From positions 1 through 64,000 of the forward strand of contig JAGQLS010000002.1 in the NCBI GenBank assembly GCA_020429045.1: a stretch of 64,000 nucleotides of DNA. Direction: 5' to 3'. Below the pieces are notes generated by a model. It was not told the origin of the DNA. It was given only the letters and a program-made list of their open reading frames with translations, and ran no database searches. The stretch is from Candidatus Woesebacteria bacterium. GTDB lineage: Bacteria > Patescibacteriota > Microgenomatia > UBA1406 > GWC2-37-13. Of the stretch, positions 1,370 through 24,265 are shown one piece after another (within the stretch, counting starts at the first letter, position 1; each line of letters begins with the position of its first letter). The position numbers and the translations under genes were made by a program.

Positions 1370-1714
1370 TTAACTAAATAAAGTCCGAACTTGGTGCACC
1401 CGCTGGAGCCCAGTAGCGCTTACTCGAACCGATCCATTTTCGATCAGTTCTTTTAAGTCTTCAGAGAGCTCATAATTAGCAATTTCTTCTCCTTTAACGC
1501 TAAACTTATTAAAGAATAAATGAAGATATTTTCTCTTGATTGAATAATGAGCCGATTTATAAGCCATTCCAAGATTTTCTGTAAGTGAGAGTATCTTTTC
1601 TAATACTTTTAATGAACCTGAATAATCTTTATTTACATTTTGTATTTCTTCTTCAATTTCTTTTAATCTCAATTCATACCGTTCATAGATTCGCTGGATA
1701 TGTCGAAGGGACGA
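1370..1714 (-). pseudogene. C-terminal remnant of a large serine recombinase
   Basis: The minus-strand frame encodes a coiled-coil segment followed by YSIKRKYLHLFFNKFSV. This is the pattern seen near the C-terminus of large serine recombinases and is related to the region of the intact copy at 10969-12642 that precedes its C-terminal tail. The catalytic domain, recombinase domain and zinc ribbon are all absent, and a stop closes the frame at 1715-1717. TTG at 1672 is a formal start, but the piece looks like a relic. It ends with a different tail from the other recombinase remnants in this window. Confidence 0.6.
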
Positions 1715-4247: not shown

Positions 4248-4835
4248 ATGACTAGTGAAAGTACTATTGTAGGATATTGGAGAGAATTAATTTCACAATT
4301 ATCGGATGAAGAGTTGATTGCCTATTCTAAAAATGGTCCTATAAGGAGAGTATTAGTTGAGGATATACTACCTCATCTAGCCTCACACCCTCAAGATGTA
4401 ATAGAAATTGGCGCATTATTTGCACCGTTAACATTAGAGTTGCCATGGCAAGTTTCAAGAGCTTTATTATTAGATCCAATATATAAAGTAAGAAAACCGC
4501 AGTTAAACTTGGATTTTTCAATTGAACTATCCGCATCCTATTTACCAGTAGGGTTAGAGCAAATATCGAACTGGTTGCAAAGACCTTCGCTAGTTGTACT
4601 AGAAAACGTACTTAATTATGTATCAAGAGATACAATTCAAAGATTGTTAGAAGATTCAAGAATTACTACAATAATTTTAGGAAATAATTCACAAGCTAGT
4701 TTCGGAGATATGCATCAAGAAAGACTGAGATCACCGATTGATATATTAGATTTATTAAGATCACAAAGATTTATAAATGAAGGAGAAATGTTTCAAACAG
4801 AAACTACACTAGCCGGGATTTTTGTAAGAAGATAA
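4248..4835 (+). CDS. Possible class I methyltransferase-fold protein
   Basis: 195 residues. DVIEIGALFAP (near residue 50) resembles the glycine-containing motif I of Rossmann-type SAM methyltransferases but has only one glycine. LLLDP follows, where an acidic residue after strand 2 is usual, and VVLENVLNYVSRDTIQRLL resembles the motif IV strand and helix. The match is weak, and the cofactor loop looks degenerate, so activity is doubtful. The ATG lies 7 bases after a -10-like TACAAT. The gene ends about 57 bases before the first junction of the cassette array and is the last gene to its left. Confidence 0.4.
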   Translation: MTSESTIVGYWRELISQLSDEELIAYSKNGPIRRVLVEDILPHLASHPQDVIEIGALFAPLTLELPWQVSRALLLDPIYKVRKPQLNLDFSIELSASYLPVGLEQISNWLQRPSLVVLENVLNYVSRDTIQRLLEDSRITTIILGNNSQASFGDMHQERLRSPIDILDLLRSQRFINEGEMFQTETTLAGIFVRR

Positions 4836-4857
4836 TTTATATATAGATATTTTTTTA

Positions 4858-5005
4858 CCCACTCCTCAATTCGAGTATCGTCCCATTGACGGAGCCAGAT
4901 GGGACGCTTAGGGTACAAAGCGTCCTTTTTTGTTGAATTGTCGGGAAATTTTCGATGTTCGAAAGTTTCTTTTTCCAAACCCTCCAAATTTTCCACTTTA
5001 GAACA
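4858..5005 (-). other. Left junction of the cassette array (attL-like), carrying a recombinase 3'-end fragment
   Basis: Bases 4892-5005 match 11065-11178 of the intact recombinase gene over 114 bp without gaps, with about 10 differences. The match starts at the GA dinucleotide 4892-4893. To the left of GA the sequence is different, although the minus-strand reading still keeps the spacing W-L-x-x-W-x7-W. I read this as X.Y, where X is the original chromosomal half-site and Y is the arm of the first cassette. CCAT lies 6-9 bases left of GA, as in the other three junctions. Confidence 0.7.
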
Positions 5006-5232
5006 CCGTGCCTGTCGGCGGCAGGCAGGAAAATGGTTACAGTGGCTCAGTGCTCGTGTTTGTCAGCAACTATAAATAGAAAGCTAAATAAAAATACCGG
5101 CAATCCGGCAAAAAGTAGTTGCTAATGCTTTCTATTATAGTTAACTATCATAGAAACCTACCAGATAGATCTAGTTGATAATATGTTTATTCCTTTGTAT
5201 TCTAAAGACATCAATTGGTAAGTAATGTTATT
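5006..5232. repeat. Non-coding lead-in of cassette A with a GC-rich palindromic repeat and an inverted repeat
   Basis: CCTGTCGGCGGCAGGCAGG (5011-5029) is a GC-rich partial palindrome in AT-rich DNA and is related to one at 22861-22877. Further on, GCAACTATAAATAGAAAGC (5066-5084) and GCTTTCTATTATAGTT (5127-5142) form an imperfect inverted repeat around a small CCGG-CAAT-CCGG element (5097-5108). The stretch may hold the promoter and operator of the HTH gene at 5233. No ORF was recognised. Confidence 0.4.
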
Positions 5233-5412
5233 ATGGAAAAACTCTTGAAACTCAAAGAAGCGGCGGAGATATTGAGCGTCCACCCCAACACCCTTCGACT
5301 TTGGGATCGCAAGGGTATTTTGGTGGCTGTGCGTATAGGTGAAAGGAAAATCAGACGCTATGAAATTTCAGCTATCAAGAGGTTCATTAAACAAAACAAT
5401 AATGAAAAATAA
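5233..5412 (+). CDS. MerR/excisionase-type helix-turn-helix protein
   Basis: 59 residues from ATG 5233; a TTG at 5215 in the same frame is less likely. The sequence LKLKEAAEILSVHPNTLRLW followed by DRKGILVAVRIGERKIRRYE is the classic single-domain winged HTH of the excisionase/MerR-like (HTH_17) family. The stop overlaps the methyltransferase start by 11 bases, so the two genes are translated together. Small HTH proteins in this position often control restriction-modification expression. Because it is also the first gene of a recombinase-built cassette, a role as directionality factor is an alternative. The family call is secure; the role is inferred. Confidence 0.75.
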   Translation: MEKLLKLKEAAEILSVHPNTLRLWDRKGILVAVRIGERKIRRYEISAIKRFIKQNNNEK

Positions 5413-6967
5413 TTTGACTTACAATACTAGTCCAAGCGAATATGCAGAGTCATTAGGCTCTGAGTTTGTTAGTCGCAAGTCAAAGAATGATATCTCATCC
5501 CTTGGTCAGTTTTTTACCCCAAAAGCCATAGCGGAAATGGTTGCCAATGATTTCGAAGAATGTTCAGCAAATGCAGTAAGAATTTTGGACCCTGGAGCAG
5601 GTAGTGGAATTCTTAGTTGTGCGCTTTGTGAAGCTATTGCTGGTTGGGATTCCAAACCCAAAAAAATTAAGCTATCTGCTTATGAAATAGATACTGAACT
5701 TGTTTCCGCGTTGAATGAAAGCCTAACTTATTTGAAAAAATGGCTGATCAAGCATGGTATTTCACTAGAGTTTGTTGTTCATCAAAAAGATTTTGTTCTG
5801 GAAAATGCTGAGGTACTTAACACATCACTTCAGCAGAGTTTGCTTGACTCGAAAAACTTTGAGGAATTTGACCTAATTGTTGCAAACCCACCATATTTTA
5901 AAATAGCAAAATCTGATCCTCGGGCAGTTGCTGCAACGCCGATCATTCACGGTCAGCCAAATATCTACGCCTTATTTATGGCTATTGCTGCTTATCTGCT
6001 GAAGGAGCGCGGACAGCTTGGTTTTATAACACCTCGTAGTTATGCCTCAGGATTATACTTTAAAAAGTTTCGTGAGAATTTCTTTGAGCAGATAATACCT
6101 CAGTCAATTCATATCTTCGAATCCAGAGATAAAGCTTTTGGAAAAGATGGTGTTTTACAAGAGAATGTGATCCTTCATGCACGGAAAGATAAGTCAATTG
6201 ATCGTGATAGCTTTGAAGTTGAAGTTTCTAGCTGTGATGGTTTATCAGATATAGCCAATTCAAAATCAATACTTATTCCACTAGAAGAGATCATCTCGTT
6301 AGAGAATGGTCATGTTTTACACATTCCCACCAAGGTTGAACAACGAGAAATTGTAAAGATTGTTAAATCTTGGAAATACAACTTGCATTCCCTCGGCTTT
6401 GAAGTTTCTACAGGTCCTATCGTAGCCTTTAGAGCTCGCGAGTTGCTCGATTCCGAAGATCTCGAGGATTCGAATGCTCCCTTGCTTTGGCTTCAAAATA
6501 TTAAGACCATGAAAGTATCTTGGCCTGTAAAATCGCGAAAACCTCAATATGTTAAGACTTCTCAGGAGGCTCAAAGACTCTTATTGCCAAACAATAATTA
6601 CGTTTTAATAAGAAGATTTAGTGCTAAGGAAGAGAAGAAAAGACTTGTTGCTGCTCCATTCATTTCTGAGGGTGGTAAATCAAAATTTGTTGGAATAGAA
6701 AATCACATTAACTACATTTACCGTAAAAATGGTAGTCTTTCAGATACTGAAGCTTTAGGTTTAGCAGCTGTTTTGAATAGTAGTTTGCTTGATGAGTACT
6801 TCCGAGTTTTTAGTGGTAACACACAAGTCAGTGCTACTGAGTTAAGAAACATTCCATTACCAGATCCAGACGTTATTGAAAGGATTGGCAAAACGATTAA
6901 AAATCGTACAATGGATCTTGTGGAAATTGATCAAAAAGTAACAAACTTAATAAGAGATTATGCCTAA
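5402..6967 (+). CDS. Type II N6-adenine DNA methyltransferase (PstI/Eco57I-like)
   Basis: About 521 residues from ATG 5402, overlapping the HTH gene. Motif I DPGAGSG is at residues 63-69 and the N6-adenine motif IV NPPY at 162-165. FFTP near residue 37 and the C-terminal target-recognition region (LWLQNIKTMKVSWP, later FRVFSGNTQVSATELR) fit the gamma-class, Eco57I/PstI-type enzymes. The gene downstream is a BsuBI/PstI-type endonuclease overlapping by 8 bases, so this enzyme should protect the cognate site by methylating adenine. In the characterised family the site is CTGCAG, but the specificity here is not proven. All key motifs are intact. Confidence 0.88.
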   Translation: MKNNLTYNTSPSEYAESLGSEFVSRKSKNDISSLGQFFTPKAIAEMVANDFEECSANAVRILDPGAGSGILSCALCEAIAGWDSKPKKIKLSAYEIDTELVSALNESLTYLKKWLIKHGISLEFVVHQKDFVLENAEVLNTSLQQSLLDSKNFEEFDLIVANPPYFKIAKSDPRAVAATPIIHGQPNIYALFMAIAAYLLKERGQLGFITPRSYASGLYFKKFRENFFEQIIPQSIHIFESRDKAFGKDGVLQENVILHARKDKSIDRDSFEVEVSSCDGLSDIANSKSILIPLEEIISLENGHVLHIPTKVEQREIVKIVKSWKYNLHSLGFEVSTGPIVAFRARELLDSEDLEDSNAPLLWLQNIKTMKVSWPVKSRKPQYVKTSQEAQRLLLPNNNYVLIRRFSAKEEKKRLVAAPFISEGGKSKFVGIENHINYIYRKNGSLSDTEALGLAAVLNSSLLDEYFRVFSGNTQVSATELRNIPLPDPDVIERIGKTIKNRTMDLVEIDQKVTNLIRDYA

Positions 6968-7916
6968 AAAAAGTCAAATCAATCAAAAAATTAATGAAGC
7001 TCAAGTCGTTTTGAAAGCTTTGGGACTTCCTCCTGCTCAACAAAACGATATGGCTGCTCTCACATTGCTTGCTCTAAGTGATTTAAGGCCTAGTTCTTCT
7101 TGGCAAGATGCTCAGAAACCCAGTTTGACAGTGTCAAAAGGAGTGATGGATTTTATTAGCCAAGAGTATAAGCGAGAATATGCACCTAATACCCGAGAAA
7201 CTGTGAGGAGACAAGTTTTGCACCAATTTGTTCAAGCATATGTGGCTCACTACAACCCAGACGATCCTACCTTACCAACGAATAGCCCGCGTGCTCACTA
7301 TGCTTTGACAGATGATGCATTGGCGGTTATCAAATCCTATGGTACATCTGGTTGGGAACTAATGCTAAAAAAATTTGAGTCACAACATGGGAAATTGGTA
7401 GAAACTTACAGGAAGAGAAGAAAACGAAATATGGTACCCATAACCATAGATGGTGGAGAAACACTTGAACTATCTCCAGGTAAACATAACGAAGTACAAG
7501 CTGCGGTCGTAGAAGAATTTGCACCAAGGTTTGCCCCAGGTTCTAAGCTCTTATATTTAGGAGATACTGCCAAGAAGAACCTTTATGTAAATGAAGAAGT
7601 ATTGGAAAAGCTAGGAATTCCTATTACAGAACACGACAAGTTGCCCGATATCGTTTTGTTTGATGAGAATAAGAGATGGCTTTACTTGATTGAGGTTGTT
7701 ACGTCACACGGACCAATGTCTCCCAAGAGAATGGTGGAGCTTGAAGAGATGCTTCAGAAATGTAGCGTTGGAAAAGTATATGTGACAGCTTTTCCTGATT
7801 TTTCAGAGTTTAGAAAACACACTTCCCATATCGCTTGGGAAACAGAAGTTTGGTTGGCAGAAATACCTGATCACATGATTCATTACAACGGTGACAGGTT
7901 TTACGGACCAAGATAA
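6960..7916 (+). CDS. BsuBI/PstI-family type II restriction endonuclease
   Basis: 318 residues, close to the family size. The C-terminal catalytic half contains DKLPDIVLFDENKRW (acidic residue at 230), LIEVVTSHGPMSPKR (Glu 245, His 250) and AFPDFSEFRKH, ending in AWETEVWLAEIPDHMIHYNGD. This run of motifs is characteristic of the BsuBI/PstI nucleases with a PD-(D/E)xK-like core. The N-terminal half (NTRETVRRQVLHQFVQA) matches the DNA-recognition region. It starts inside the methyltransferase stop region and is followed after a single base by the TrlF-like gene, forming one operon. The protein looks intact and active. Confidence 0.9.
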   Translation: MPKKSQINQKINEAQVVLKALGLPPAQQNDMAALTLLALSDLRPSSSWQDAQKPSLTVSKGVMDFISQEYKREYAPNTRETVRRQVLHQFVQAYVAHYNPDDPTLPTNSPRAHYALTDDALAVIKSYGTSGWELMLKKFESQHGKLVETYRKRRKRNMVPITIDGGETLELSPGKHNEVQAAVVEEFAPRFAPGSKLLYLGDTAKKNLYVNEEVLEKLGIPITEHDKLPDIVLFDENKRWLYLIEVVTSHGPMSPKRMVELEEMLQKCSVGKVYVTAFPDFSEFRKHTSHIAWETEVWLAEIPDHMIHYNGDRFYGPR

Positions 7917-7917
7917 T

Positions 7918-10896
7918 ATGCCAGATAATTTATACCCGAAAGGCTCAGAGTGGAGAAAGTGGGACCTGCATGTCCACACTCCCATGTCGATCATACAAAA
8001 TTATGGTGGTAATAATAATGCTGCCTGGGACGCTTTTATTCAAAAATTAGCATCTTTACCTCAAGAAATTAAAGTCATTGCTATTACTGATTATTTATTT
8101 TGTGATGGCTATGAACATTTGTTAACACGTAGGGATGAAATTCCTAATATTGATTTAATCATTCCCAATATAGAGTTCAGATTAAATACTTTTAGTGGTA
8201 CAGCCAACAATTCAAAACGGCATAACTTTCATGTTCTATTTGACTCTTCAATTGATGTTCAAGATATCAGAGACCAGCTTTTAAATGGACTTTCAACTGG
8301 ATACAAGATCCAGGATGGAACAGTGTGGCAACAAACGCCAACTACTCGCTCTTTGGAGGAACTTGGAAGACAAATAATGGCTGCTGCACCAGCAGATAAT
8401 TCCATACATAATAAATCTGATCTTGAAGTTGGTTTTGATAATATTACTTATAAACGGGAAGACATCGAGAAACTTCTAGAGAAAAATTGTTTCAAAGGTC
8501 GTTACATTACCGCTATTGGTTATTCTGAATGGGATCAATCAAGATGGGACCAATCAGCGGCTGAAAAACGAACACTAATAAATACAGCCCATTTTGCTCT
8601 TACAAGTTTGGATGACCCTTCTAAGATTGATGAGAATCGTAAAAACTTAGCAGAAAACAAACTCAACGACTTAGTCCTACATTCTTCCGATGCTCATTCA
8701 ATCGATCAGATAGGGAAAACGCTTCTTTGGATAAAAGCAGACCCCACGTTCGCTGGTTTAAAACAAGTTCTTAATGAGCCTTATGCACGAGTGTTTATAG
8801 GAGATACTCCCCCCAACCTCAAGCCTGAACATAAAGTTATTAAAAGCATATCAATTCCAGATTCTAAGGGATGGTTTAAAGATGGGTTTGAATTAGAGCT
8901 GAATCGAGACTTGATTACGATTATTGGTGGACGTGGATCAGGAAAGTCTGCATTAGTCGAAGCTATTGCTTATGGCTCAGGAAGTAAAGACGATAATGAA
9001 GAGGCGTTTTTAAAAAAGGCTTCAAAGCATAAGGATACGATAATAGGAACCCAAATTAATATTGAGTGGGGTGATGGTCAGAAAACTGATTTCAGAGTTG
9101 GCGATCTTATTACAGATCGCGGTCTTGTGCGATATCTTCCCCAAGGGGCTGTCGAAGAACTTTGCTCTCATCACAACAGTGCAAAACTACAATCACAAAT
9201 AGAGAACGTTATATTTCAGAAACTAGATGATACAGAGCGAATGGGCGCGTCAAACTTTAGTGAGCTTAAAAAGAGAATTTTAAGTAATTATCAGTATGAG
9301 AAAGAAGGGGTTGTTGAAAAACTTGGAGAGATTAACAGAAATCTGAGCAGTTTGATTGCCGTATTACAAAGTTTGCCCACAAAGAAAAAACAACTTGCAG
9401 AGAGAAAGGGTGAGCTCAAAAGATTAAACGATAGCCTTCCTAAATTGCCCGCAGAAGATAAAAAGGGTCAAGAAGAACTCGCGACATTACTTGAGATAAA
9501 GAAAAAGTTCCAAACTAAAATAGTCGCACTTCAGGGGAAATTAAGCAAAATAAGTGATGTAGAGACTAAGGTTAAGATATTCAAAACGAAAATTAGTGAG
9601 TTTAAGTCAGAAATAGGTTTATTGGTAGCAGATTTTGATGAAATCAAACCAGATGTTTTTGAGGTGAACTTTGACGAGGAAGCCATAAAAAAGTCTATTG
9701 ATGATGAAAAAATCAAAATAAGTACTCAACTTAAAACTCTGAGAGAAGGTAAGAAAGAAGACGTTGCAATTTTGTTGGAAATTGAGGAAAAAAGTCTAAC
9801 TTTTGACAATCTTCAAGATTTGAATAAAGGGATAGAAGATAAACAAAAAGAAACTAGGGCGTTTGAGACAATAAAATTGAAATATCAACAGCAAAAGAAA
9901 ACAATACTTTCGGTTGAAAGCTCCATTAAGGCTTTAGAAGGAGAAATTACTAGGATTAATACAGAGTCTACCTCTGAAAAACAGAGACTTGAAAAAGAAC
10001 GTCTCAGCGTATATGAGTCATATTTTGACCTTTTGAAAGAGGAAAAAGAAAAAATCGAAGAGTTGTATAAACCGTTACAAGACTCTTTAGCCTCGGGGAC
10101 CGATACTGACAGAAAATTGGTCTTTGAGGCTCAAATTAATTATCAACTCGAATCTCATAACAAAGCTGGCTTGGAGATTATTGATAGGTCTAGGAAGGGT
10201 AATTTCAGAGATTTGGAAGAATTAAGAAAAACTCTTGGTGATTTATGGGATGAATTTGCAAGAGAAGGCTTTAAGAACGATGTTTTAGAAACAAAACTTC
10301 AGAAGATTCTTGAAAAATTTTCAATCTTTGACGGCAAAGAAATATCCATTCTTGAGCAGTTAAGAGAGAATTATTCTTTGGAAGACTTTTTCAATTGGAT
10401 ATTTGACCCTACATATTTTGAGATTATTTCTTCACTAAAGTTTGATGATACGGATCTTTATGTGCTATCTCCTGGTCAAAAGGGAATTATTCTTTTGATT
10501 CTCTATTTAAAAATTGACGAAGATGATTATAGACCTTTAATTATTGATCAACCTGAAGAGAACTTAGACAATCTTTCAGTTTATAAAGATTTAATTGAGT
10601 ATTTTAGCGATAGGAAACAATATCGACAGATTATTATGGTTACCCATAATCCCAATCTTGTTGTAAACACGGACGCAGAACAAGTGGTGGTAGCTAATTA
10701 CAATGGTAAACGTGGCCCAAGACTTGAATATTGCTCTGGTTCGTTGGAAGACCAAGCTAAAAAGATACCTGATGTGGAAGTTGATGAATTTGAAAATGGG
10801 ATTATCGAACAAGTGTGTAACATTCTAGAGGGTGGCGAGCCTGCATTCTCGAAGCGGAAAAAGAAATATCAAATTTCAACTCGAAGTCAAATTTAA
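7918..10896 (+). CDS. TrlF-like protein: PHP domain fused to an SMC/ABC-type ATPase
   Basis: About 992 residues from ATG 7918, one base after the endonuclease stop. The N-terminal PHP-type metal site reads WDLHVHTP (about residues 13-20), with later metal-ligand candidates IAITDY and HSSDAHS. A Walker A GGRGSGKSA follows at about 337-345, then a long coiled coil (about 460-800), an ABC signature LSPGQKG, Walker B LIIDQPEENLDN (about 872-884) and an H-loop VTHNPN. This PHP plus SMC-like layout defines the TrlF group of large ATPases, often found next to restriction or defence genes. The likely role is ATP-gated nuclease or phosphoesterase action on invading nucleic acid; that role is inferred. 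Confidence 0.8.
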   Translation: MPDNLYPKGSEWRKWDLHVHTPMSIIQNYGGNNNAAWDAFIQKLASLPQEIKVIAITDYLFCDGYEHLLTRRDEIPNIDLIIPNIEFRLNTFSGTANNSKRHNFHVLFDSSIDVQDIRDQLLNGLSTGYKIQDGTVWQQTPTTRSLEELGRQIMAAAPADNSIHNKSDLEVGFDNITYKREDIEKLLEKNCFKGRYITAIGYSEWDQSRWDQSAAEKRTLINTAHFALTSLDDPSKIDENRKNLAENKLNDLVLHSSDAHSIDQIGKTLLWIKADPTFAGLKQVLNEPYARVFIGDTPPNLKPEHKVIKSISIPDSKGWFKDGFELELNRDLITIIGGRGSGKSALVEAIAYGSGSKDDNEEAFLKKASKHKDTIIGTQINIEWGDGQKTDFRVGDLITDRGLVRYLPQGAVEELCSHHNSAKLQSQIENVIFQKLDDTERMGASNFSELKKRILSNYQYEKEGVVEKLGEINRNLSSLIAVLQSLPTKKKQLAERKGELKRLNDSLPKLPAEDKKGQEELATLLEIKKKFQTKIVALQGKLSKISDVETKVKIFKTKISEFKSEIGLLVADFDEIKPDVFEVNFDEEAIKKSIDDEKIKISTQLKTLREGKKEDVAILLEIEEKSLTFDNLQDLNKGIEDKQKETRAFETIKLKYQQQKKTILSVESSIKALEGEITRINTESTSEKQRLEKERLSVYESYFDLLKEEKEKIEELYKPLQDSLASGTDTDRKLVFEAQINYQLESHNKAGLEIIDRSRKGNFRDLEELRKTLGDLWDEFAREGFKNDVLETKLQKILEKFSIFDGKEISILEQLRENYSLEDFFNWIFDPTYFEIISSLKFDDTDLYVLSPGQKGIILLILYLKIDEDDYRPLIIDQPEENLDNLSVYKDLIEYFSDRKQYRQIIMVTHNPNLVVNTDAEQVVVANYNGKRGPRLEYCSGSLEDQAKKIPDVEVDEFENGIIEQVCNILEGGEPAFSKRKKKYQISTRSQI

Positions 10897-10912
10897 ATTG
10901 TTTGGTTATAAG

Positions 10913-10941
10913 TGTTGACATCTCTTTTTTCAATGTCAACA
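10913..10941. terminator. Hairpin between the convergent trlF-like and recombinase genes
   Basis: Perfect 9-bp inverted repeat TGTTGACAT / ATGTCAACA with an 11-base T-rich loop. A third TTGACAT-like copy lies at 10955. It could be a weak bidirectional terminator or an operator; no clean T-tract follows the stem. Confidence 0.35.
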
Positions 10942-10968
10942 GAACCGTTAAATAGTTGACATTCGTCT

Positions 10969-12642
10969 TTAAGCTTGTAAAAACCTCCCCACTTCCTTCA
11001 CCGTCCACTCCGGATATTCCAGCTCGCTGACCCAATCAATTTTTCCGAATTCATACCATTTCTCGAGCCAGATGGGACGCTTAAGGCACAAAGCGTCCTT
11101 TTTTGTTGAAACATCGGGATTTTCGCGATGTTCGAAAGTTTCTTTTTCCAAACCCTTCAAATTTTCCACTTTAGAACAATTTGTCTGACTTACTGCCTCA
11201 GACAGTATCTTAAAGGCTCGGGAGTATTCCCAGCTGAGTTTGCCTTCATCTAAAATGAGTTTCTTGAAGACCAGCCTGATTAGGTCACGCTGTTCGTCCA
11301 ACATCTCCTTCTTTTTGGCGGAGAGGTAAATTTCTTTGGCACGTTGCGAGAGCTCGTAGAGGTTTATGCCGAGATTCAGGTAGCCAGTGCTGGCGGTGGA
11401 GTGCCTCTTTATGGTTTCGGTCAGTTCGTCTTTTTCCTTTGAATACTGTTTAAACTTGCGGTTGTAAAATTCCTGGGTGATTTTTTCATCGAGTTTGTCA
11501 TCGTATAACTTATCCATTCTCCTGGAAACTGCCTCGTAGCGGGTTTCTAACTCGCCCACAGTGCTGTTGTGGTACTCGACTTCGTCCCGATGGCTCTCTT
11601 TGAGCGCCTTCTTAAGCCACTCGGTGATTCTTTTATTCTTAATCCTCAGGTTTTCAAAGCCAGCTAAGAGTTGGTCCTCAGTGCCTGGTTCTTTGACCCA
11701 AGTCTCCTGATCACATTCGTTGTAGTGGTTGCAGTGGCCGTAGCGATGGCCACTGTGAAGCTCCCAGGTGATTAGCCCTTTGCAGGTAGCGCAGCGGATT
11801 AAGCCTTTGAATAAGTAGCTATGTTTCATATAGGTGGGTGTGGTTTTGCTTTTAAGTAACTTCTGAACTTTGTCGAATACTTCTTTGCTGATTAATGGTT
11901 CCTGTTTGCCTTCGTAAATTTCATCATTCCATCTAATCTTACCCATATAAAAAGGATCCCGCAGCAGGGAGTGAGTGCGGCTGACTGCCAATTTGTTACC
12001 CTGAGGCGATCTCATGCCTTCTTTGTACATGGTGTTGGCTAGTTTCTTGATGGAATAGTCGCCGGAGGCGTAGAGTTCAAACATCTTAATGACCAGCTTG
12101 GAAGCACTTTCATCGATGATGTGGATCTTATGGCCGGTTTCACCGACAGTTTTATAACCAAGAGGAGGTCTAGTGGGTAACCAGCCCTGAGCCAGTTTTT
12201 CTTTTTGTCCCTTCTTAACGTTCTCGGAAAGCAGGCGGACATAATACTCGGCTGTGGCTACCTTGACCCTCCACATAAACCATTCGTGGGAGCGGGAGGA
12301 ATTGTGCAGGACACAGGCTTCTTTGGCTAGATGGATCTGGTGGTTTTCGCTTTCGGTGATCCATTGGTCAATAGTGGGAACATCAGAGAAGTTTCTGGTC
12401 AAACGGTCGGTAGTTTCAACAATGATGGCGCAGATATTCTGCTTCCTGACATAGGCGATCATTTCCTCAAAGACCTTACGTTGGCTTTTGCCTGCAGCTG
12501 ACTCGGAGATGGCAAAGACTTTTTTAACTTCCAAGCCTTGTTTGTCGCCATATTCTCGCAGGAACTTCTCCTGCGCCGGGAGGGAGTAGCCCGTTTCTTC
12601 CTGTTCTTTGCTGGAGACTCGGCAGAATATGACGCTTTTCAT
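10969..12642 (-). CDS. Large serine recombinase (site-specific integrase)
   Basis: 557 residues. The N-terminal resolvase domain has IFCRVSSKEQ with the catalytic serine near residue 10, then the TTDRLTRNF segment. A Recombinase domain (LPTRPPLGYKTVG, SRTHSLLRDPFYMGKIRWN) follows, with a zinc ribbon CATC...CNHYNEC and a long coiled coil (about 370-440). This is the layout of phage-type serine integrases. The last 33 or so codons lie left of the putative crossover dinucleotide at 11065-11066, so the C-terminus is encoded by the end of the neighbouring cassette. It shares an ATGA overlap with the small gene upstream. The catalytic motifs are intact. Confidence 0.93.
   Translation of the reverse strand: MKSVIFCRVSSKEQEETGYSLPAQEKFLREYGDKQGLEVKKVFAISESAAGKSQRKVFEEMIAYVRKQNICAIIVETTDRLTRNFSDVPTIDQWITESENHQIHLAKEACVLHNSSRSHEWFMWRVKVATAEYYVRLLSENVKKGQKEKLAQGWLPTRPPLGYKTVGETGHKIHIIDESASKLVIKMFELYASGDYSIKKLANTMYKEGMRSPQGNKLAVSRTHSLLRDPFYMGKIRWNDEIYEGKQEPLISKEVFDKVQKLLKSKTTPTYMKHSYLFKGLIRCATCKGLITWELHSGHRYGHCNHYNECDQETWVKEPGTEDQLLAGFENLRIKNKRITEWLKKALKESHRDEVEYHNSTVGELETRYEAVSRRMDKLYDDKLDEKITQEFYNRKFKQYSKEKDELTETIKRHSTASTGYLNLGINLYELSQRAKEIYLSAKKKEMLDEQRDLIRLVFKKLILDEGKLSWEYSRAFKILSEAVSQTNCSKVENLKGLEKETFEHRENPDVSTKKDALCLKRPIWLEKWYEFGKIDWVSELEYPEWTVKEVGRFLQA
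10978..11178 (-). other. Second junction of the cassette array, inside the recombinase 3' end
   Basis: The left arm (10978-11066) matches 21464-21552 without gaps and with about 5 differences. The right arm (11065-11178) matches 4892-5005. The two matches meet exactly at GA (11065-11066). An imperfect dyad, CCAT at 11056-11059 and ATGG at 11072-11075, is centred on this GA. A 2-bp asymmetric core with flanking dyad arms is what serine integrases use. Confidence 0.7.
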
Positions 12643-17201: not shown

Positions 17202-17266
17202 TATAATTGAGATGAGGCTGATAGCTTGATGCGCCTCAACACCTGCCCTTAGTTGGGCTTTTTTTG
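17202..17266 (+). promoter_or_regulatory. Attenuator-like leader: promoter, hairpin and intrinsic terminator ahead of the STAND gene
   Basis: TATAAT (17202-17207) is followed by a hairpin TGAGGC / GCCTCA (17213-17218, 17233-17238) and then GCCC-TTAGTT-GGGC with seven T's (17245-17265). Transcription from this -10 would give an RNA of about 50 bases that stops before the big gene. No clear -35 is visible. It could be a small RNA or a leader where read-through switches on the STAND gene. Confidence 0.5.
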
Positions 17267-17309
17267 TATGAATTTAATACTCTGGGTAACCGGGATTTAT
17301 GTTAATTAT

Positions 17310-20300
17310 ATGAAGAAAAACAAATTTACTGATCAAACTTGGGCAACAAGTCATTTTGAGAAAGTTTCAAATAAGGCTGGACCTCGATACACACCAAAAC
17401 TAAATGTCGATTTACCCATAGCAGAAATATTTGATGGTATAAGTCGCACCGGGCGATTTTATAAATCTTTAAGAACTCACTACGGGAAATTAAGCCGAGA
17501 ATTTAACCGTGTCTCTTCAAAAAATGAGAATAAAGAGGTACAGAGTCTTTATAAAAATTTTAGAAAGGAAACACTCGATTTATTCAGCCTCTTAGAACAG
17601 CAGAAAGAATATTGTACTGATTTGATCCCTTGGAAAAAAATCAAAAATAGATCGAGTAAGGCCCTTAACATTTCTTGGGAATTATCAAGTAAGCTTAGGG
17701 AAGAAAAAGAGAGGTTAGAAAAGACAACCAAGTCTCAAGATTCTCAGAAAACTCCGTCACAAGATTTAGGTTCTGATATTCATTACCTTTATGAGTGTCA
17801 AAAAGAACTTAGATATTTTCAAGAGCTATCGACAAGTACAAAGGCGGGATTGGCTAATAACCCATTTTTGTTACTGACTGGGATAGCAGGAACAGGAAAA
17901 ACACATCTTCTTTGTGATGTCCTTAAAGGTCGTTTAACAGGAGAGGACATAAGTCCATCTGTTATGTGCTTTGGGGAGCATTTTAAGTCAGGGGAAGATT
18001 TACTTAATCAGATTTCACATCAGTCTGGAGTTAAACTGGATCAAAAGCACTTTCTAAAATGTTTGGACTTTTCTGCTAGAAAAAATAAAAGCAGAGCGCT
18101 GCTCATAGTTGATGCTTTAAATGAAACTAGAATAAATAATTTTTGGAAAACTCACCTTCCTGCTTTGATCTCAGAAGTGAAACGATATCCTAATATTGCA
18201 TTAGTTGTTAGTTGTAGGACTGGATTCGAAAAAGAAGTCATGACTGCGAAAACTTCTAAAGAGTTTGTAAAAGAAGATCATCCGGGCTTTCGCTTCAAAG
18301 AATGGGAGGCCATCAGTAAGTTCTTTCATGAATTCAAGCTACCCTTACCAGAAATCCCCCTTTTAACTCCAGAATTTCAAAATCCCTTATTTCTTCTTCT
18401 ATTTTGTAAGGCTTTTCAAAACAGAAAAAACAAAAATAAGAAGCAAGTTTTCAAAGGGCATGAAGGTGCTACGTATATTTTTGAATCTTTTGTAGATAGC
18501 GTATCTAAAAAAATAGCCAAGCAATTCAGTATTAGCAATAGCCCAGGAAGTAATATCTGGGATTGTATTATTGAAAAGGTTGCTGAGGAAATGGTTAATA
18601 GCAATGATGAAAGAATTTCAGAGGACCAATTATCAGAAATAATTGCTAAGGCTTATCCTCAGGTTAGTAAAAGTGATCTTATTCAGAGTTTGGAAAGGAA
18701 TCTACTAATTGTTAAAACTCCTAGATATTCTACAGAAAAGCAAAAGTATGAGGGTTATGATTTTAGGTTTCCTTTCCAAAAGTTTAGTGATCACTTAATA
18801 GGTAGATATCTTTTTAAAAACTACGAAGGTGAATTTAGCAAAAAAAATAAAAATTTAAATACTGCAAAAAAATTCTTCTCTAGACGTAGGAGGATCGGGA
18901 AGTTTTTGTTTAATTCCTGGAACAAAGGTATTGTAGAAGCACTATCTATTCAATGCCCGGAACAGTTAAGGGGTATAGAGTTTTTTGAAGTAGCTCCCTA
19001 TTTAAACGGGAAATCATTACTTCCTGAAGCTTTTGTTGAAAGTGTTATATGGCGTAGACCAGACGCCTTTTCTGGTGACTTAAAAAAAGTTAAAGAATTT
19101 GTCAATTCAGAAATAATAACAACAGAATCTGGGCACCATAGTTTTTTAAATGCGTTGCTCTCTGTTGCTCCTATCCCATCCCATCCTTTCAATTCGCTGT
19201 TTTTACACAGACATCTTTCTAGATTTTCTATGGCAGAACGCGATTCTTGGTGGTCAACTTTCTTGCATTATCAGAATGGTGAACAAGAAGCAGTGGACAG
19301 ATTAGTTGAGTGGAGTTGGTCCGATCAAAGCAAATCAAACATAAGTGATGATTCTATTTTACTCTGTTCGATCGCGTTGGCTTGGTTTTTAACCACTCCT
19401 AATAGGTTTTTGAGAGATAAAAGCACTAAAGCACTTGTAACTCTTTTGACTAATAGATTGAATGTTGTACTCAATTTGCTCAAAATATTTAAAGACGTTA
19501 ATGACCCATATGTTTCTGAACGTATTTATGCGGTGGCCTATGGTGTGGCGTTAAGATCTAGAAAGGAGAAGATGGAGCTCAAAGCACTGTCTATGTGGAT
19601 TTACAATAATCATTTTAAGAATGGAAATCCTCCTGTTCATATACTACAACGTGACTATACCAGAGGAGTGATACATGTAGCTTTAAATGAGGGTATTAAA
19701 TTAAAAATCAGTCAAAATAAAATTAACCCTCCATTTGGTAGTTCATGGCCAAAGAGAGTGCCTACTGAAAAGTACCTTAAGAAGAAATATTATCCGGAAA
19801 AATTTTTTAAGGATAAGAGTGAAAATCGTGGATTTTTAGATATATGGTCATCAGTGATGTATAGCTTTGGCTCATTAGCGGATTTTGGTAACTATGTTTT
19901 GGGCTCAGCTGTAAATCATTGGTCAGGAAGAAGACTTAACTCGCAAGAAGTTCATAGAAAATCAATTTATGAAAAGTTTAAAAAAAGCCTTACTAAAGAT
20001 CAATTAAAACTGTTGGAAATGGCAACTAATCCTTTCTATGGAATAGATTTTTCTAAAATTATGGATCATATAAAAATTGTTTCTTATGACAAACCAAAGG
20101 AAAAAGAAGAGCTTGAAAAGCAAGAGTTAGAAGAAAAGCAGGAAAGAGCAAAGACGATGAGTACGTTTCTAAAATCTTTGCCGGATAAGAGGAGAGCGTT
20201 TTTCAAGAAGGAAATAAAACCTTTTCTAGATGATAGGGGGAGCATAAACGATCCTTTAGAAAGATTTAATCCAGGGTTGGCTCAAAGATGGCTTTTCAAC

Positions 20301-21458
20301 AGGGTTGTACAACTTGGCTGGAGTTATGAGCTTCATGGTCAATTTGATAGTAATTTGAACTACCATCGAGCTGATAGATCTGACCATAAGCCTGAGAGAA
20401 TAGGTAAAAAATATCAGTGGATAGCTCTACATGAGCTTTTGGCAAGGATTGCTGATAACTTTGAGTTTAAAAAAGATAGCTGGTCTCATGAATCAGATGA
20501 ATATGAGGGTTCATGGCAAATAAGTGTTAGAGATATAGACCCATCCTGTATATTAAAGGATTTTCCCAATCATCCTACTGATGGAATTCCTTCATTTAAA
20601 ACCTTTAAAGTAGAGAGAATTTATGATGCTTGGAATAAGAAAGTCTCTGACATTGGTTGGCTAAAAAAGAAATCTGATTTACCAGATCCCAAGGACATAT
20701 TAGAGTTGACGGATAAAGATGGTGTCGTTTGGCTCTCACTTGAGGGTTTTACAGAATGGCAGGATGAAACACCACCTGAGGACGAAAAATACGATAAAGC
20801 GACAAGAACACTTTGGTATATGACAAAAAGCTATTTTCTAAAAAACAACGACACAAAAAAAGTCTTAAATTGGGCCTTTAAGCAAAGGTTTATGGGGAGA
20901 TGGATGCCTGAATCTCATGAGTTCTACAATATTTATCTTTCAGAATATCCCTGGGCTCCTGCTTTTCTAAATCAATATATCCCATACTACCATCACGACG
21001 GATGGACCAAAAATTCTCAAGGTGAAGAAAAAATACCATCAAAAGTACTAGTCACAGATGATGAGTATTTAAGCAGTGGATCATCGATTGATTGTTCTAC
21101 TGAAAATTCAATTCATGTAAAACTGCCAGCTAAATATATAGTGGGCGAAATGAAATTAACTCAGCCCTATGTCGATGGCAGGTTTTTTGACCCAAAAGGT
21201 GAACTTGTAGTTTTCTATCCCAGAGCTTTTGACTTAGAAGCACCTGGTCATGTTTTTATAAGGAAAGACAAACTCATTTCTTTCTTGAAGCAAAAAAACT
21301 TATCAATTTTTTGGACAGTAATAGGAGAGAAAAATATGATTGGGGGAGGTGGTGTCGGACAACCATTGGGTTGGTTAGAAGTAAATGGTGTTTATTTCTT
21401 GGAAAATAGTCATTTAACAGGGTCTTTAGGGGTATCATTTTCAAAATCTCAGAGCTAG
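17310..21458 (+). CDS. Very large STAND/NACHT-like P-loop NTPase, probable anti-phage protein
   Basis: 1383 residues from ATG 17310; earlier in-frame starts lie in or next to the terminator. Walker A GIAGTGKTH is at about 190-198 and Walker B LLIVDALNE at about 264-272, followed by SCRTGF (sensor-like), as in STAND NTPases. The N-terminal region RYTPKLNVDLPIAEIFDG and a long C-terminal alpha-helical part with a beta-rich end (DGRFFDPKGELVVFYPRAF) are features I associate with large bacterial AVAST-like proteins. No separate nuclease domain was recognised. The likely job is target recognition followed by an unknown effector step. Defence is inferred from architecture and from its place among restriction genes. 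Confidence 0.65.
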   Translation: MKKNKFTDQTWATSHFEKVSNKAGPRYTPKLNVDLPIAEIFDGISRTGRFYKSLRTHYGKLSREFNRVSSKNENKEVQSLYKNFRKETLDLFSLLEQQKEYCTDLIPWKKIKNRSSKALNISWELSSKLREEKERLEKTTKSQDSQKTPSQDLGSDIHYLYECQKELRYFQELSTSTKAGLANNPFLLLTGIAGTGKTHLLCDVLKGRLTGEDISPSVMCFGEHFKSGEDLLNQISHQSGVKLDQKHFLKCLDFSARKNKSRALLIVDALNETRINNFWKTHLPALISEVKRYPNIALVVSCRTGFEKEVMTAKTSKEFVKEDHPGFRFKEWEAISKFFHEFKLPLPEIPLLTPEFQNPLFLLLFCKAFQNRKNKNKKQVFKGHEGATYIFESFVDSVSKKIAKQFSISNSPGSNIWDCIIEKVAEEMVNSNDERISEDQLSEIIAKAYPQVSKSDLIQSLERNLLIVKTPRYSTEKQKYEGYDFRFPFQKFSDHLIGRYLFKNYEGEFSKKNKNLNTAKKFFSRRRRIGKFLFNSWNKGIVEALSIQCPEQLRGIEFFEVAPYLNGKSLLPEAFVESVIWRRPDAFSGDLKKVKEFVNSEIITTESGHHSFLNALLSVAPIPSHPFNSLFLHRHLSRFSMAERDSWWSTFLHYQNGEQEAVDRLVEWSWSDQSKSNISDDSILLCSIALAWFLTTPNRFLRDKSTKALVTLLTNRLNVVLNLLKIFKDVNDPYVSERIYAVAYGVALRSRKEKMELKALSMWIYNNHFKNGNPPVHILQRDYTRGVIHVALNEGIKLKISQNKINPPFGSSWPKRVPTEKYLKKKYYPEKFFKDKSENRGFLDIWSSVMYSFGSLADFGNYVLGSAVNHWSGRRLNSQEVHRKSIYEKFKKSLTKDQLKLLEMATNPFYGIDFSKIMDHIKIVSYDKPKEKEELEKQELEEKQERAKTMSTFLKSLPDKRRAFFKKEIKPFLDDRGSINDPLERFNPGLAQRWLFNRVVQLGWSYELHGQFDSNLNYHRADRSDHKPERIGKKYQWIALHELLARIADNFEFKKDSWSHESDEYEGSWQISVRDIDPSCILKDFPNHPTDGIPSFKTFKVERIYDAWNKKVSDIGWLKKKSDLPDPKDILELTDKDGVVWLSLEGFTEWQDETPPEDEKYDKATRTLWYMTKSYFLKNNDTKKVLNWAFKQRFMGRWMPESHEFYNIYLSEYPWAPAFLNQYIPYYHHDGWTKNSQGEEKIPSKVLVTDDEYLSSGSSIDCSTENSIHVKLPAKYIVGEMKLTQPYVDGRFFDPKGELVVFYPRAFDLEAPGHVFIRKDKLISFLKQKNLSIFWTVIGEKNMIGGGGVGQPLGWLEVNGVYFLENSHLTGSLGVSFSKSQS

Positions 21459-21463
21459 AAGGC

Positions 21464-21552
21464 TAAAAACCTCCCCGCTTCCTTTACTGTCCATTCCGGA
21501 TATTCCAGCTCGCTGACCCAGTCAATTTTTCCGAATTCATACCATTTCTCGA
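21464..21552 (-). other. Third junction of the cassette array, with recombinase C-terminal codons
   Basis: 89 bp match 10978-11066 without gaps at about 94% identity and stop matching at GA (21551-21552). On the minus strand they encode a C-terminus like that of the recombinase (KIDWVSELEYPEWTVKE). Right of GA the sequence is unrelated to the recombinase. This reads as the right arm of cassette B joined to the left arm of cassette C. Confidence 0.7.
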
Positions 21553-22843: not shown

Positions 22844-24154
22844 ATGAATGATCAAGCCTTGTCTGCCGACAGGCAGGTACAGACAAAAATCACCAAAAAT
22901 CTCTTAGCATCTGCCCTCAAAGAACAACATGAGGCTTTTGTAGCTCGTGATCTGGGAGTAGAAAGAGAAATTTTAGCAGAATTAAAAAAGGCTATTGCTG
23001 CTCCACAAGTGACAGTTATCACTGGTCTCAGGCGAGTTGGTAAATCAACTTTGCTTGCTCAAGTAGCCAAGAAGTATCTCAAAAATGACTTTTACTTTGT
23101 TAATTTTGAAGATGAACGATTGTTAAACTTCCAAGTTAGTGATTTTGATGTACTTCATGAGACCCTGATAAGTCTGTTTGGTGAGAAGAAGACATTTTTG
23201 TTTGACGAAATTCAAAATGTACCTGAGTGGGAAAGGTTTGTGCGTCGCCTACATGATCAGGGATATAAATTTATTGTTACTGGCTACAACGCATCACTCC
23301 TGAGCCAGGAATTGGGAACTAGACTTACTGGTCGTTCTATACGAGTAGAATTGTTTCCATTTTCGTTTAGAGAATACTTAGACTTCCGTAAAGTCAAAAC
23401 TCTTGACCTGAGTGTCTTAACTACCAGGCAAAAAGGCAACTTACGCAAACTTGCCAATGAATACATTACTTTTGGTGGTATTCCAGATGCACTCAAATAT
23501 CCAGAGCTAGGCGTTCATAAGGCGTTGTATGATGATGTTTTGTATCGCGATATTGCTACCAGGTACAAGCTGAAGAATGTTAAAAGCTTAAAAGAACTGT
23601 CATTTTACCTAGTAAGTAATACTGCCAGCCTTGTGTCTTACAACAAACTTAAAGATCTGCTCAAATTAGGAAGCGTAAATACTGTTATTAACTATGTTGA
23701 TTATTTGGAAAATAGTTGGTTATTTTTTGTAGTGAATAAATATGCCCACTCTGTCAAAGAACAGCAAATTGCTGCCAAAAAAACGTACGGTATTGATACG
23801 GGATTGATTAGATCGGTGGGTTTTTCTTTTTCCGAGAACAAAGGCAAGTTAATGGAAAATGAGGTTTTCCTACAACTGCGGAGAAAGTATCAGGATGTGT
23901 ATTACTATAAGACGACTGAAGACTACGAAGTTGATTTTTTTATACCGAAAGAAGGATCTCTCATCCAAGTAGCTCAGCATTTTGATTCGATAGAAACCAA
24001 AGAAAGGGAATTGAGGGCGTTGGTGAGTGCAGCCAGTGAACAGAATAAAACTAAAAAATTGCTTATCATTACCGAAAGTGAGAAAGCTGAATTTGAAAAG
24101 GAAGGCGTACAAATTCAAGCCGTTCCTCTGTATGAGTGGCTATTACGAGTTTAG
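22844..24154 (+). CDS. AAA-family ATPase with C-terminal DUF4143 domain
   Basis: 436 residues. The P-loop ITGLRRVGKST (near residue 60), Walker B FLFDEIQNV (near 125), a GYNAS sensor and the LFPFSFREYL segment are those of the ATPase family that ends in DUF4143. The C-terminal nuclease-like fold shows YYKTTEDYEVDFFI (E-V-D-F pattern). Proteins of this kind are frequent in accessory regions, and their role is poorly known. Oddly, residues 5-12 (ALSADRQV) are encoded by a GC-rich palindromic repeat (about 22860-22878) that looks inserted into the reading frame; a start after it is possible. Confidence 0.85.
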   Translation: MNDQALSADRQVQTKITKNLLASALKEQHEAFVARDLGVEREILAELKKAIAAPQVTVITGLRRVGKSTLLAQVAKKYLKNDFYFVNFEDERLLNFQVSDFDVLHETLISLFGEKKTFLFDEIQNVPEWERFVRRLHDQGYKFIVTGYNASLLSQELGTRLTGRSIRVELFPFSFREYLDFRKVKTLDLSVLTTRQKGNLRKLANEYITFGGIPDALKYPELGVHKALYDDVLYRDIATRYKLKNVKSLKELSFYLVSNTASLVSYNKLKDLLKLGSVNTVINYVDYLENSWLFFVVNKYAHSVKEQQIAAKKTYGIDTGLIRSVGFSFSENKGKLMENEVFLQLRRKYQDVYYYKTTEDYEVDFFIPKEGSLIQVAQHFDSIETKERELRALVSAASEQNKTKKLLIITESEKAEFEKEGVQIQAVPLYEWLLRV

Positions 24155-24265
24155 AAATCGATTCACTTCTTTGGTTGTAAATTCTGGGTATTCTAAGTAA
24201 GTCAGCCAGTCAATGTTTCGGAAAGTCTCCCATCGCTTGAGCCAAAACACTAGATACGAACTCAT
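24143..24265 (-). other. Fourth junction of the array (attR-like), carrying a recombinase-type C-terminal arm
   Basis: The minus strand encodes a 40-residue frame whose C-terminal part (WLKRWETFRNIDWLTYLEYP, then EFTTKEVNRFL) is clearly homologous to the recombinase tail. Homology ends at GA (24239-24240) next to the shared GCCA. Right of GA the sequence belongs to a different context (BrnT-like fragment on the plus strand). This reads as the right arm of cassette C joined to the original chromosomal half-site U. Confidence 0.65.

What the first reader, a model, noticed from the sequence alone, without database searches (positions are those of the whole stretch)
5233..10896. Restriction-modification cassette with a coupled PHP-ATPase
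An HTH protein, a PstI-type methyltransferase, a PstI/BsuBI nuclease and a TrlF-like PHP-SMC ATPase are packed with overlaps or a one-base gap. The tight linkage of a TrlF-like protein to a simple type II system suggests joint defence, for example the ATPase acting on cut or unmodified DNA.
Basis: partly seen in the sequence, partly recalled or inferred. Interest (0 to 1): 0.55.

Follow-up and report, generated by a model that had tools for sequence, protein, structure and literature searches.

The report
Mobile restriction cassette with partner ATPase-nuclease
A tiny-genome bacterium carries a compact package of a DNA-cutting restriction system plus a large ATPase with a built-in nuclease domain, bounded by the recombination sites of a mobile element whose integrase gene appears to lose its own tail when the element inserts next to a tRNA gene.

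Summary
In detail: 5233-10896 holds an HTH protein, a PstI-type methyltransferase, a BsuBI/PstI nuclease and a TrlF ATPase, tightly packed, motifs intact. The specific pairing is not recurrent: TrlF follows BsuBI/PstI genes in 1 of 4 Patescibacteria with that nuclease and 0 of 5 plasmid loci read. The general pairing is: in 11 of 17 Patescibacteria with full TrlF it belongs to an R-M operon, of differing kinds (PstI, CfrBI, DpnII-like, HpaII, EcoO109I, EcoRI-MTase/HNH, type I, type III); the closest TrlFs (66-72% identical) follow type III systems. TrlF thus looks like a swappable R-M companion; its model is a PHP domain fused to an SMC/Rad50-like head. The cassette is also a discrete module (4892-11065) bounded by junctions of a large serine recombinase. 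That gene crosses the junction: in relatives its core runs into a tRNA 3' end, while its ~30-codon tail lies alone 10-19 kb away and still evolves as coding sequence. This resembles archaeal 'suicidal' integrases but is bacterial and of the serine family. Mechanism and mobility are inferred, not shown.

The parts
5233..5412 (+). small HTH protein (HTH_17/MerR type, 59 aa), possible controller or excisionase-like protein
   Evidence: PF12728 1.8e-9, PF00376 7.6e-9; ORF frame
5402..6967 (+). PstI-type N6-adenine DNA methyltransferase (521 aa)
   Evidence: Eco57I 4.3e-16, PDLC03227 1.7e-123, motifs DPGAGSG and NPPY
6960..7916 (+). BsuBI/PstI-family restriction endonuclease (318 aa)
   Evidence: PF06616 4.5e-62, PF17728 2.3e-47; PD and E245/HGP residues invariant in 6 aligned sequences
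7918..10896 (+). TrlF-family PHP-domain/SMC-like ATPase (992 aa)
   Evidence: NF045780 599 bits; motifs; model and fold matches
4878..5014 (-). left copy of the 137-nt repeat: displaced 3' end of a recombinase gene, left boundary of the cassette (break at 4892)
   Evidence: 90 of 100 nt identical upstream of the core end, 39 of 100 downstream
11051..11187 (-). right copy of the 137-nt repeat inside the recombinase gene; right boundary of the cassette at 11065 (core TGGCTC)
11065..12642 (-). large serine recombinase, core part (about codons 1-526)
   Evidence: Resolvase 2.7e-20, Recombinase 6.7e-16, CcrB-like 108.9 bits (below cut-off)
10969..11064 (-). recombinase tail (about 30 codons), here joined to the core
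21464..21550 (-). detached recombinase tail (97% aa identity), far end of the recombinase module
24146..24244 (-). second detached, more diverged tail (58% aa identity)
4826..4891 (-). probable strongly diverged tail next to the left repeat (uncertain)
   Evidence: match to residues 51-114 of the query, 58% including the core part; not found by the tail-only search

Best explanation
The cassette is a mobile defence module. A PstI-type system marks host DNA (probably CTGCAG, inferred from the family) and cuts unmarked incoming DNA. The co-transcribed TrlF adds a second layer: its SMC/Rad50-like head loads on DNA ends or stalled DNA produced by restriction, and its PHP domain cleaves nucleic acid there, making restriction irreversible. 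TrlF does not need PstI as such; it is a swappable companion that docks behind whatever R-M system a mobile element carries. The module (4892-11065) has no recombinase of its own but has the element's two recombination ends, so it was probably placed in tandem beside a full element by that element's serine recombinase. Shown: gene identities, intact motifs, fold class, module boundaries with sharp breaks, recurrence of TrlF behind different R-M kinds. Inferred: nuclease activity and target, co-transcription, coupling to restriction, mobility.
For: Genes and motifs. Recurrence: of 17 Patescibacteria with over-cut-off TrlF (5 of 96 genomes, 13 of 379, G000 counted once) 11 have TrlF in an R-M operon: G000 PstI, G004 CfrBI, G016 MTase/DpnII-like, G005 and G428 EcoRI-MTase plus GmrSD/HNH, G055 and G118 and G272 type III, G418 type I, G209 HpaII, G432 EcoO109I. 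TrlFs 66% and 72% identical to this one follow type III Mod and Res genes. In 80 TrlF loci, 30 of 93 operonic neighbour genes were R-M-like against 8 of 141 nearest non-operonic genes (Fisher p 1e-7). Fold: the PHP half (residues 11-298) matches endonuclease Q (Z 15.0), the PHP phosphoesterase 2anu (Z 14.6) and RNase AM (Z 13.2); the rest matches SMC, RecN and Rad50 heads. Boundaries. A second genome, G321, has a TrlF/MTase module flanked by two 384-nt, 78% identical direct repeats of a related recombinase 3' end, the outer one running into a tRNA-like 3' part.
Against: Outside Patescibacteria most TrlF genes are not next to R-M by my count (14 of 78 loci are; my profiles lacked type II nucleases and C5 methyltransferases, so this is a lower bound). 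3 of 17 Patescibacterial TrlFs have no R-M gene nearby and 3 have one only divergent or about 1 kb off. I found no report of a defence or nuclease activity of TrlF; the one named operon (Photorhabdus trlR-trlF-trlG) concerns temperature restriction, and no mutations arose in trlF (PMC7554251, passages). The empty-site test gave no full-length empty site.
Confidence: 0.48

Rival explanations
1. TrlF is a guard of the R-M system, like PrrC, RloC or the PARIS ATPase AriA: silent while restriction works and unleashed (PHP domain, perhaps on RNA or tRNA) when a phage inhibits restriction or DNA is broken.
For: PrrC is silenced by a linked type I R-M enzyme and activated by a phage anti-restriction factor; RloC is an ABC-ATPase tRNase activated by DNA breaks (PMC2610378 abstract, PMC3874168 abstract and one section). 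The TrlF profile and model match AriA among others. The PHP domain also matches RNase AM. Swappable partners fit a guard of restriction in general.
Against: PrrC is linked to type I systems; here R-M kinds are mixed. No PrrC/RloC model was among the nine PADLOC families that hit TrlF. How one guard would sense eight unrelated R-M enzymes is unclear, unless it senses DNA breaks or a common inhibitor.
Confidence: 0.27
2. R-M and TrlF are independent defence genes that merely travel in the same defence cargo; the tight spacing only reflects compact genomes and shared expression.
For: 64 of 78 non-Patescibacterial TrlF loci had no operonic R-M gene by my profiles; neighbouring modules carry other defence genes, e.g. 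an Avs2-like protein at 17253-21455. G339 has PstI R-M and TrlF at separate loci.
Against: Operonic order with TrlF last (or between Mod and Res in G118) recurs with unrelated R-M systems; enrichment over nearby control genes.
Confidence: 0.2
3. TrlF protects the host or the element from its own restriction system, for example by repairing or clearing breaks made when methylation lags, so it is a maintenance factor rather than a weapon.
For: SMC/Rad50/RecN-like heads are typical of break repair (role recalled); a maintenance role also explains swappable partners.
Against: Solitary TrlF genes are common; the PHP motifs are intact, and a PHP-ATPase relative (Ppl) is named anti-phage in NCBIfam.
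Confidence: 0.05

Closest known systems
BsuBI/PstI type II restriction-modification systems
   Same: methyltransferase and nuclease families, adjacency and motifs
   Different: followed by TrlF and preceded by an HTH; no other BsuBI/PstI locus read here has TrlF behind it
TrlF family ATPases (NF045780)
   Same: full-length match far above cut-off; PHP plus SMC-like head
   Different: the name comes from Photorhabdus temperature restriction locus F, where no defence role was shown; here it ends an R-M operon
PrrC / RloC anticodon nucleases
   Same: ABC-ATPase effectors linked to, or interplaying with, R-M systems and DNA breaks
   Different: TrlF has an N-terminal PHP domain and its R-M partners are of many types
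SbcCD / Mre11-Rad50
   Same: Rad50/SMC-like head coupled to a phosphoesterase-type domain
   Different: the domain is PHP and in the same chain; the SbcCD comparison is recalled
SCC and Enterococcus cassette chromosome (Ccr serine recombinases)
   Same: large serine recombinase, direct-repeat att sites, variable cargo, multiple att sites in islands (PMC6222049 abstract and one section)
   Different: recombinase below Ccr cut-offs; the target is tRNA 3' ends, not rlmH (recalled for SCC); the att site lies inside the recombinase gene
SSV-type suicidal integrases of archaea
   Same: att site inside the integrase gene, gene split on integration (PMC8371274 passages); insertion at tRNA genes (recalled)
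   Different: those are tyrosine recombinases and were described as exclusively archaeal; here a bacterial serine recombinase loses only its last ~30 codons

Membership tests
BsuBI/PstI type II R-M | BsuBI/PstI nuclease domains (PF06616, PF17728) over gathering score | tested here: met
   208.5 and 160.8 bits against 27
BsuBI/PstI type II R-M | adjacent N6-adenine methyltransferase with motifs I and IV | tested here: met
BsuBI/PstI type II R-M | recognition and methylation of CTGCAG | not testable with these tools
   no methylation data; CTGCAG not depleted in the window
TrlF family | NF045780 over curated cut-off | tested here: met
   599.3 bits against 350, residues 17-994 of the 1001-aa reading
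TrlF family | PHP metal-site motifs plus intact ABC ATPase motifs | tested here: met
Ppl anti-phage protein | NF042955 over curated cut-off | tested here: not met
   116.7 bits against 1000
PrrC/RloC | anticodon-nuclease domain and, for PrrC, linkage to a type I R-M system | tested here: inconclusive
   no PrrC/RloC model among the 9 PADLOC hits; the linked system here is type II; nuclease triad not tested
SCC (CcrA/B/C) | Ccr recombinase over curated cut-off | tested here: not met
   CcrB 108.9 bits against 900
self-splitting (suicidal) integrase elements | att site inside the integrase gene, gene parts at the two ends of the integrated element | tested here: met
   core at tRNA 3' end, tail 10-19 kb away on the same strand; excision itself not shown
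self-splitting (suicidal) integrase elements | tyrosine recombinase family | tested here: not met
   Resolvase and Recombinase (serine) domains

The most novel reading that the evidence does not exclude
Patescibacteria have a serine-recombinase counterpart of archaeal suicidal integrases. The element's attP lies inside its recombinase gene; inserting at a tRNA 3' end (core TGGCTC, the complement of GAGCCA) swaps the last ~30 codons for tRNA-encoded read-through and leaves the tail at the other end, so the protein's C-terminus reports integration state and could set recombination direction. Non-autonomous modules keep only the two ends and pile up in tandem as a cassette array of defence genes; R-M plus a swappable companion, TrlF, is one such cargo.
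Probability: 0.55. Interest if true: 0.8.

Novelty: new variant of a known kind. Interest (0 to 1): 0.64.

Why it matters
If TrlF is a general companion of R-M systems, one of the oldest known defences has an unrecognised second enzyme that is swapped between type I, II and III systems, and this is directly testable in laboratory strains. The module boundaries point to a vehicle for defence genes in Patescibacteria, a large group for which my paper searches listed little on mobile elements, and to an integrase whose C-terminus changes with integration, a possible answer to how direction is controlled there.

Tried and rejected
Rejected: a specific TrlF-PstI partnership. Rejected: the repeat as a transposon or chance repeat; its two copies part at the same nucleotide as tRNA-joined relatives. 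Rejected: tail conservation as a plain DNA site; in 25 detached tails third codon positions vary more (entropy 1.17 against 0.69 and 0.59; column permutation p 5e-5) and 2 of 25 contain a stop (rows dropped: the broken copies in L240 and, for the entropy, L230 and the 3 joined tails).

Inconclusive: empty-site search with joined flanks of the G660 element in 42 genomes of its family; apart from the two flanks in G660 itself only the tRNA and short pieces of either flank matched. CTGCAG avoidance: none. Whether the left boundary at 4892 faces a diverged tail or chromosome is unresolved. ARAGORN finds a tRNA right behind the recombinase core in 7 of 12 cores checked; in 4 more (L231, L234, L237, L240) I read a T-arm-like sequence by eye, and L228 is unclear. 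Paper searches for TrlF with R-M and for self-splitting serine integrases or such elements in Patescibacteria listed nothing on either; I saw only the listed top rows, and the library lacks most subscription papers and all preprints. In one search the loose threshold rang in all 14 control genomes, so only over-cut-off matches were counted. Two fragmentary TrlF matches (G256, G445) were not examined.

Full report
What is there. Genes 5233-5412, 5402-6967, 6960-7916 and 7918-10896 encode an HTH_17/MerR protein, an Eco57I-class N6-adenine methyltransferase of the PstI kind, a BsuBI/PstI nuclease and a TrlF ATPase. All catalytic motifs looked for are present. The spacing (11-nt overlap, 8-nt overlap, 1-nt gap) suggests one transcript; that is inference.

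TrlF behind R-M genes. In 96 relatives TrlF passes its cut-off in 5 genomes; in a phylum sample in 13 of 379; together 17 genomes. In 11 of 17 TrlF belongs to an R-M operon: G000 (PstI), G004 (N6/N4 MTase and CfrBI nuclease), G016 (MTase and a weak DpnII match), G005 and G428 (EcoRI-type MTase and GmrSD/HNH nuclease), G055 (type III Mod), G118 (Mod, TrlF, Res), G272 (Mod, Res), G418 (HsdM, HsdS, HsdR), G209 (C5 MTase, HpaII nuclease, a 188-aa protein, TrlF), G432 (MTase and EcoO109I nuclease); gene maps are, families. Three more have an R-M-like gene nearby but divergent or about 1 kb off (G430, G321, G279; in G321 the methyltransferases were judged by motif only), and three have none (G289, G339, G465). 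A truncated TrlF in G013 also follows a type III Res-like gene; a broken TrlF in G519 lies in what reads as a type I locus (by motif and order only).

Outside the phylum. A genome-contig scan with a TrlF alignment gave 553 relatives, of which the best 80 were kept. The two closest, 66% and 72% identical (L081 Omnitrophota, L082 Paceibacterota), follow type III Mod and Res genes. With local profiles, 16 of 80 loci have an R-M-like gene in the same operon (14 of 78 without the two Patescibacteria L082 and L101); 30 of 93 operonic neighbours were R-M-like against 8 of 141 nearest non-operonic genes (Fisher p 1e-7; 11 of 17 against 14 of 78, p 3e-4, same call). L081's upstream genes lie 166 bp off, beyond my 150-bp limit, and were added by hand before the count of 93. 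The criteria differ: Patescibacteria were judged by Pfam/PADLOC, the 80 loci by six local profiles without type II nucleases or C5 methyltransferases, so the second contrast overstates the difference. A Pfam tally of the 93 neighbours gives ResIII 11, N6_N4_Mtase 7, N6_Mtase 6, Methylase_S 6, YhcG 5.

What TrlF looks like. AlphaFold (68 sequences, mean pLDDT 86.5, pTM 0.72) shows an N-terminal PHP domain and an SMC-type head with a long coiled coil. VIA-align: residues 11-298 match endonuclease Q (Z 15.0, rmsd 3.5, 214 aligned), 2anu (Z 14.6) and RNase AM (Z 13.2); residues 303-972 match SMC heads (1w1w Z 15.2, rmsd 3.5, 238 aligned), RecN and Rad50. A profile search of PDB sequences finds SMC6, Rad50, AriA and retron PtuA. 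A shared fold does not show function.

The cassette as a module. A 137-nt direct repeat, 85% identical, brackets the cassette. The right copy is inside a large serine recombinase gene on the - strand (10969-12642); the left copy is a displaced end of such a gene. Counting from the end of the core TGGCTC, the copies agree at 90 of 100 nt on the recombinase side and 39 of 100 on the other. In relatives the recombinase core ends at this core sequence and runs into a tRNA 3' end: tRNA-Asn in L057, L058, L233, L235, L238 and tRNA-Gln in L061, L227, T-arm-like by eye in four more. L057 breaks about 33 codons earlier than the others. TGGCTC is the complement of GAGCCA, a tRNA 3' terminus.

The missing tail. 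Searching 372 class genomes with the last 123 codons splits the matches at the same point: core-end matches (query residues 1-94) and separate tail matches (about 88-122). Core and tail lie on the same strand, tail upstream, in seven loci sets: window (10.5 kb), L231, L232/L233, L234, L235, L236/L237, L238. The window's detached tail at 21464-21550 is 97% identical in protein and shares 29 exact nt with the joined one, with similarity only downstream of the break (20, 19, 19, 17 of 20 against 5 of 20 upstream). Detached tails evolve as coding sequence. The simplest reading: the tail is the other end of the element, joined to the core only in the excised circle or in tandem arrays. In the window, L056 and L062 core and tail are joined and are followed by defence-like cargo: the R-M/TrlF cassette, a RhuM-like protein (PADLOC PDC-S05), and a type IIG R-M with a helicase. 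Recombinases that split their own gene have been described as exclusively archaeal tyrosine integrases (PMC8371274, passages).

An independent replicate. In G321 (L186) a TrlF gene, a Hypoth_Ymh protein and methyltransferase-like genes lie between two direct repeats of a related recombinase 3' end (384 nt, 78% identical), the inner facing the TrlF 3' end and the outer running into a tRNA-like 3' part that ARAGORN does not call. In G428 (L190) a serine recombinase also faces the TrlF 3' end, 20 bp away.

Reading. R-M and TrlF form one mobile defence cargo; TrlF most likely adds an end-directed nuclease step to restriction, with a PrrC/RloC/PARIS-like guard role as main rival. Neither is shown. 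The PARIS comparison rests on AriA matches; that AriA senses an anti-restriction protein is recalled.

Noticed in passing
window 17253-21455 (+): Avs2-like STAND NTPase (PADLOC PDLC02164, 1335 bits) inside the recombinase module; it aligns from profile position 165, and no nuclease-like N-terminus is readable upstream.
   Followed up: partly
window 21464-21550 and 24146-24244 (-): Two detached recombinase tails delimit a 2.7-kb module with a PADLOC PDC-S01 ATPase (22844-24151).
   Followed up: partly
window 10913-10962 and L062 about 190-242: Downstream of the joined tail three copies of a TGTCAAC/GTTGACA motif are conserved between the window and L062; possible binding site or terminator (read by eye).
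   Followed up: no
window 1370-1672 (-): Remnant of another recombinase family's C-terminus, 42% identical to one that precedes a tail in L231: probably a further module boundary.
   Followed up: partly
L225, L226, L229: Runs of 3-4 tails on one contig, spaced about 0.1-5 kb apart with varied genes between, in G726 and G691: possible long cassette arrays.
   Followed up: partly
L059, L060, L063, L064, L065: More distant serine recombinases of the phylum also end next to tRNA genes (Ser in L059, L060, L065; Trp in L063, L064), suggesting tRNA targeting is general for this group.
   Followed up: partly
L118 246-1130 and 2316-5288: A TrlF gene in a Crocinitomicaceae contig lies two genes behind a KwaB-like (Kiwa) gene.
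   Followed up: no
window 1-64000: ARAGORN finds no tRNA gene in the whole 64 kb.
   Followed up: no
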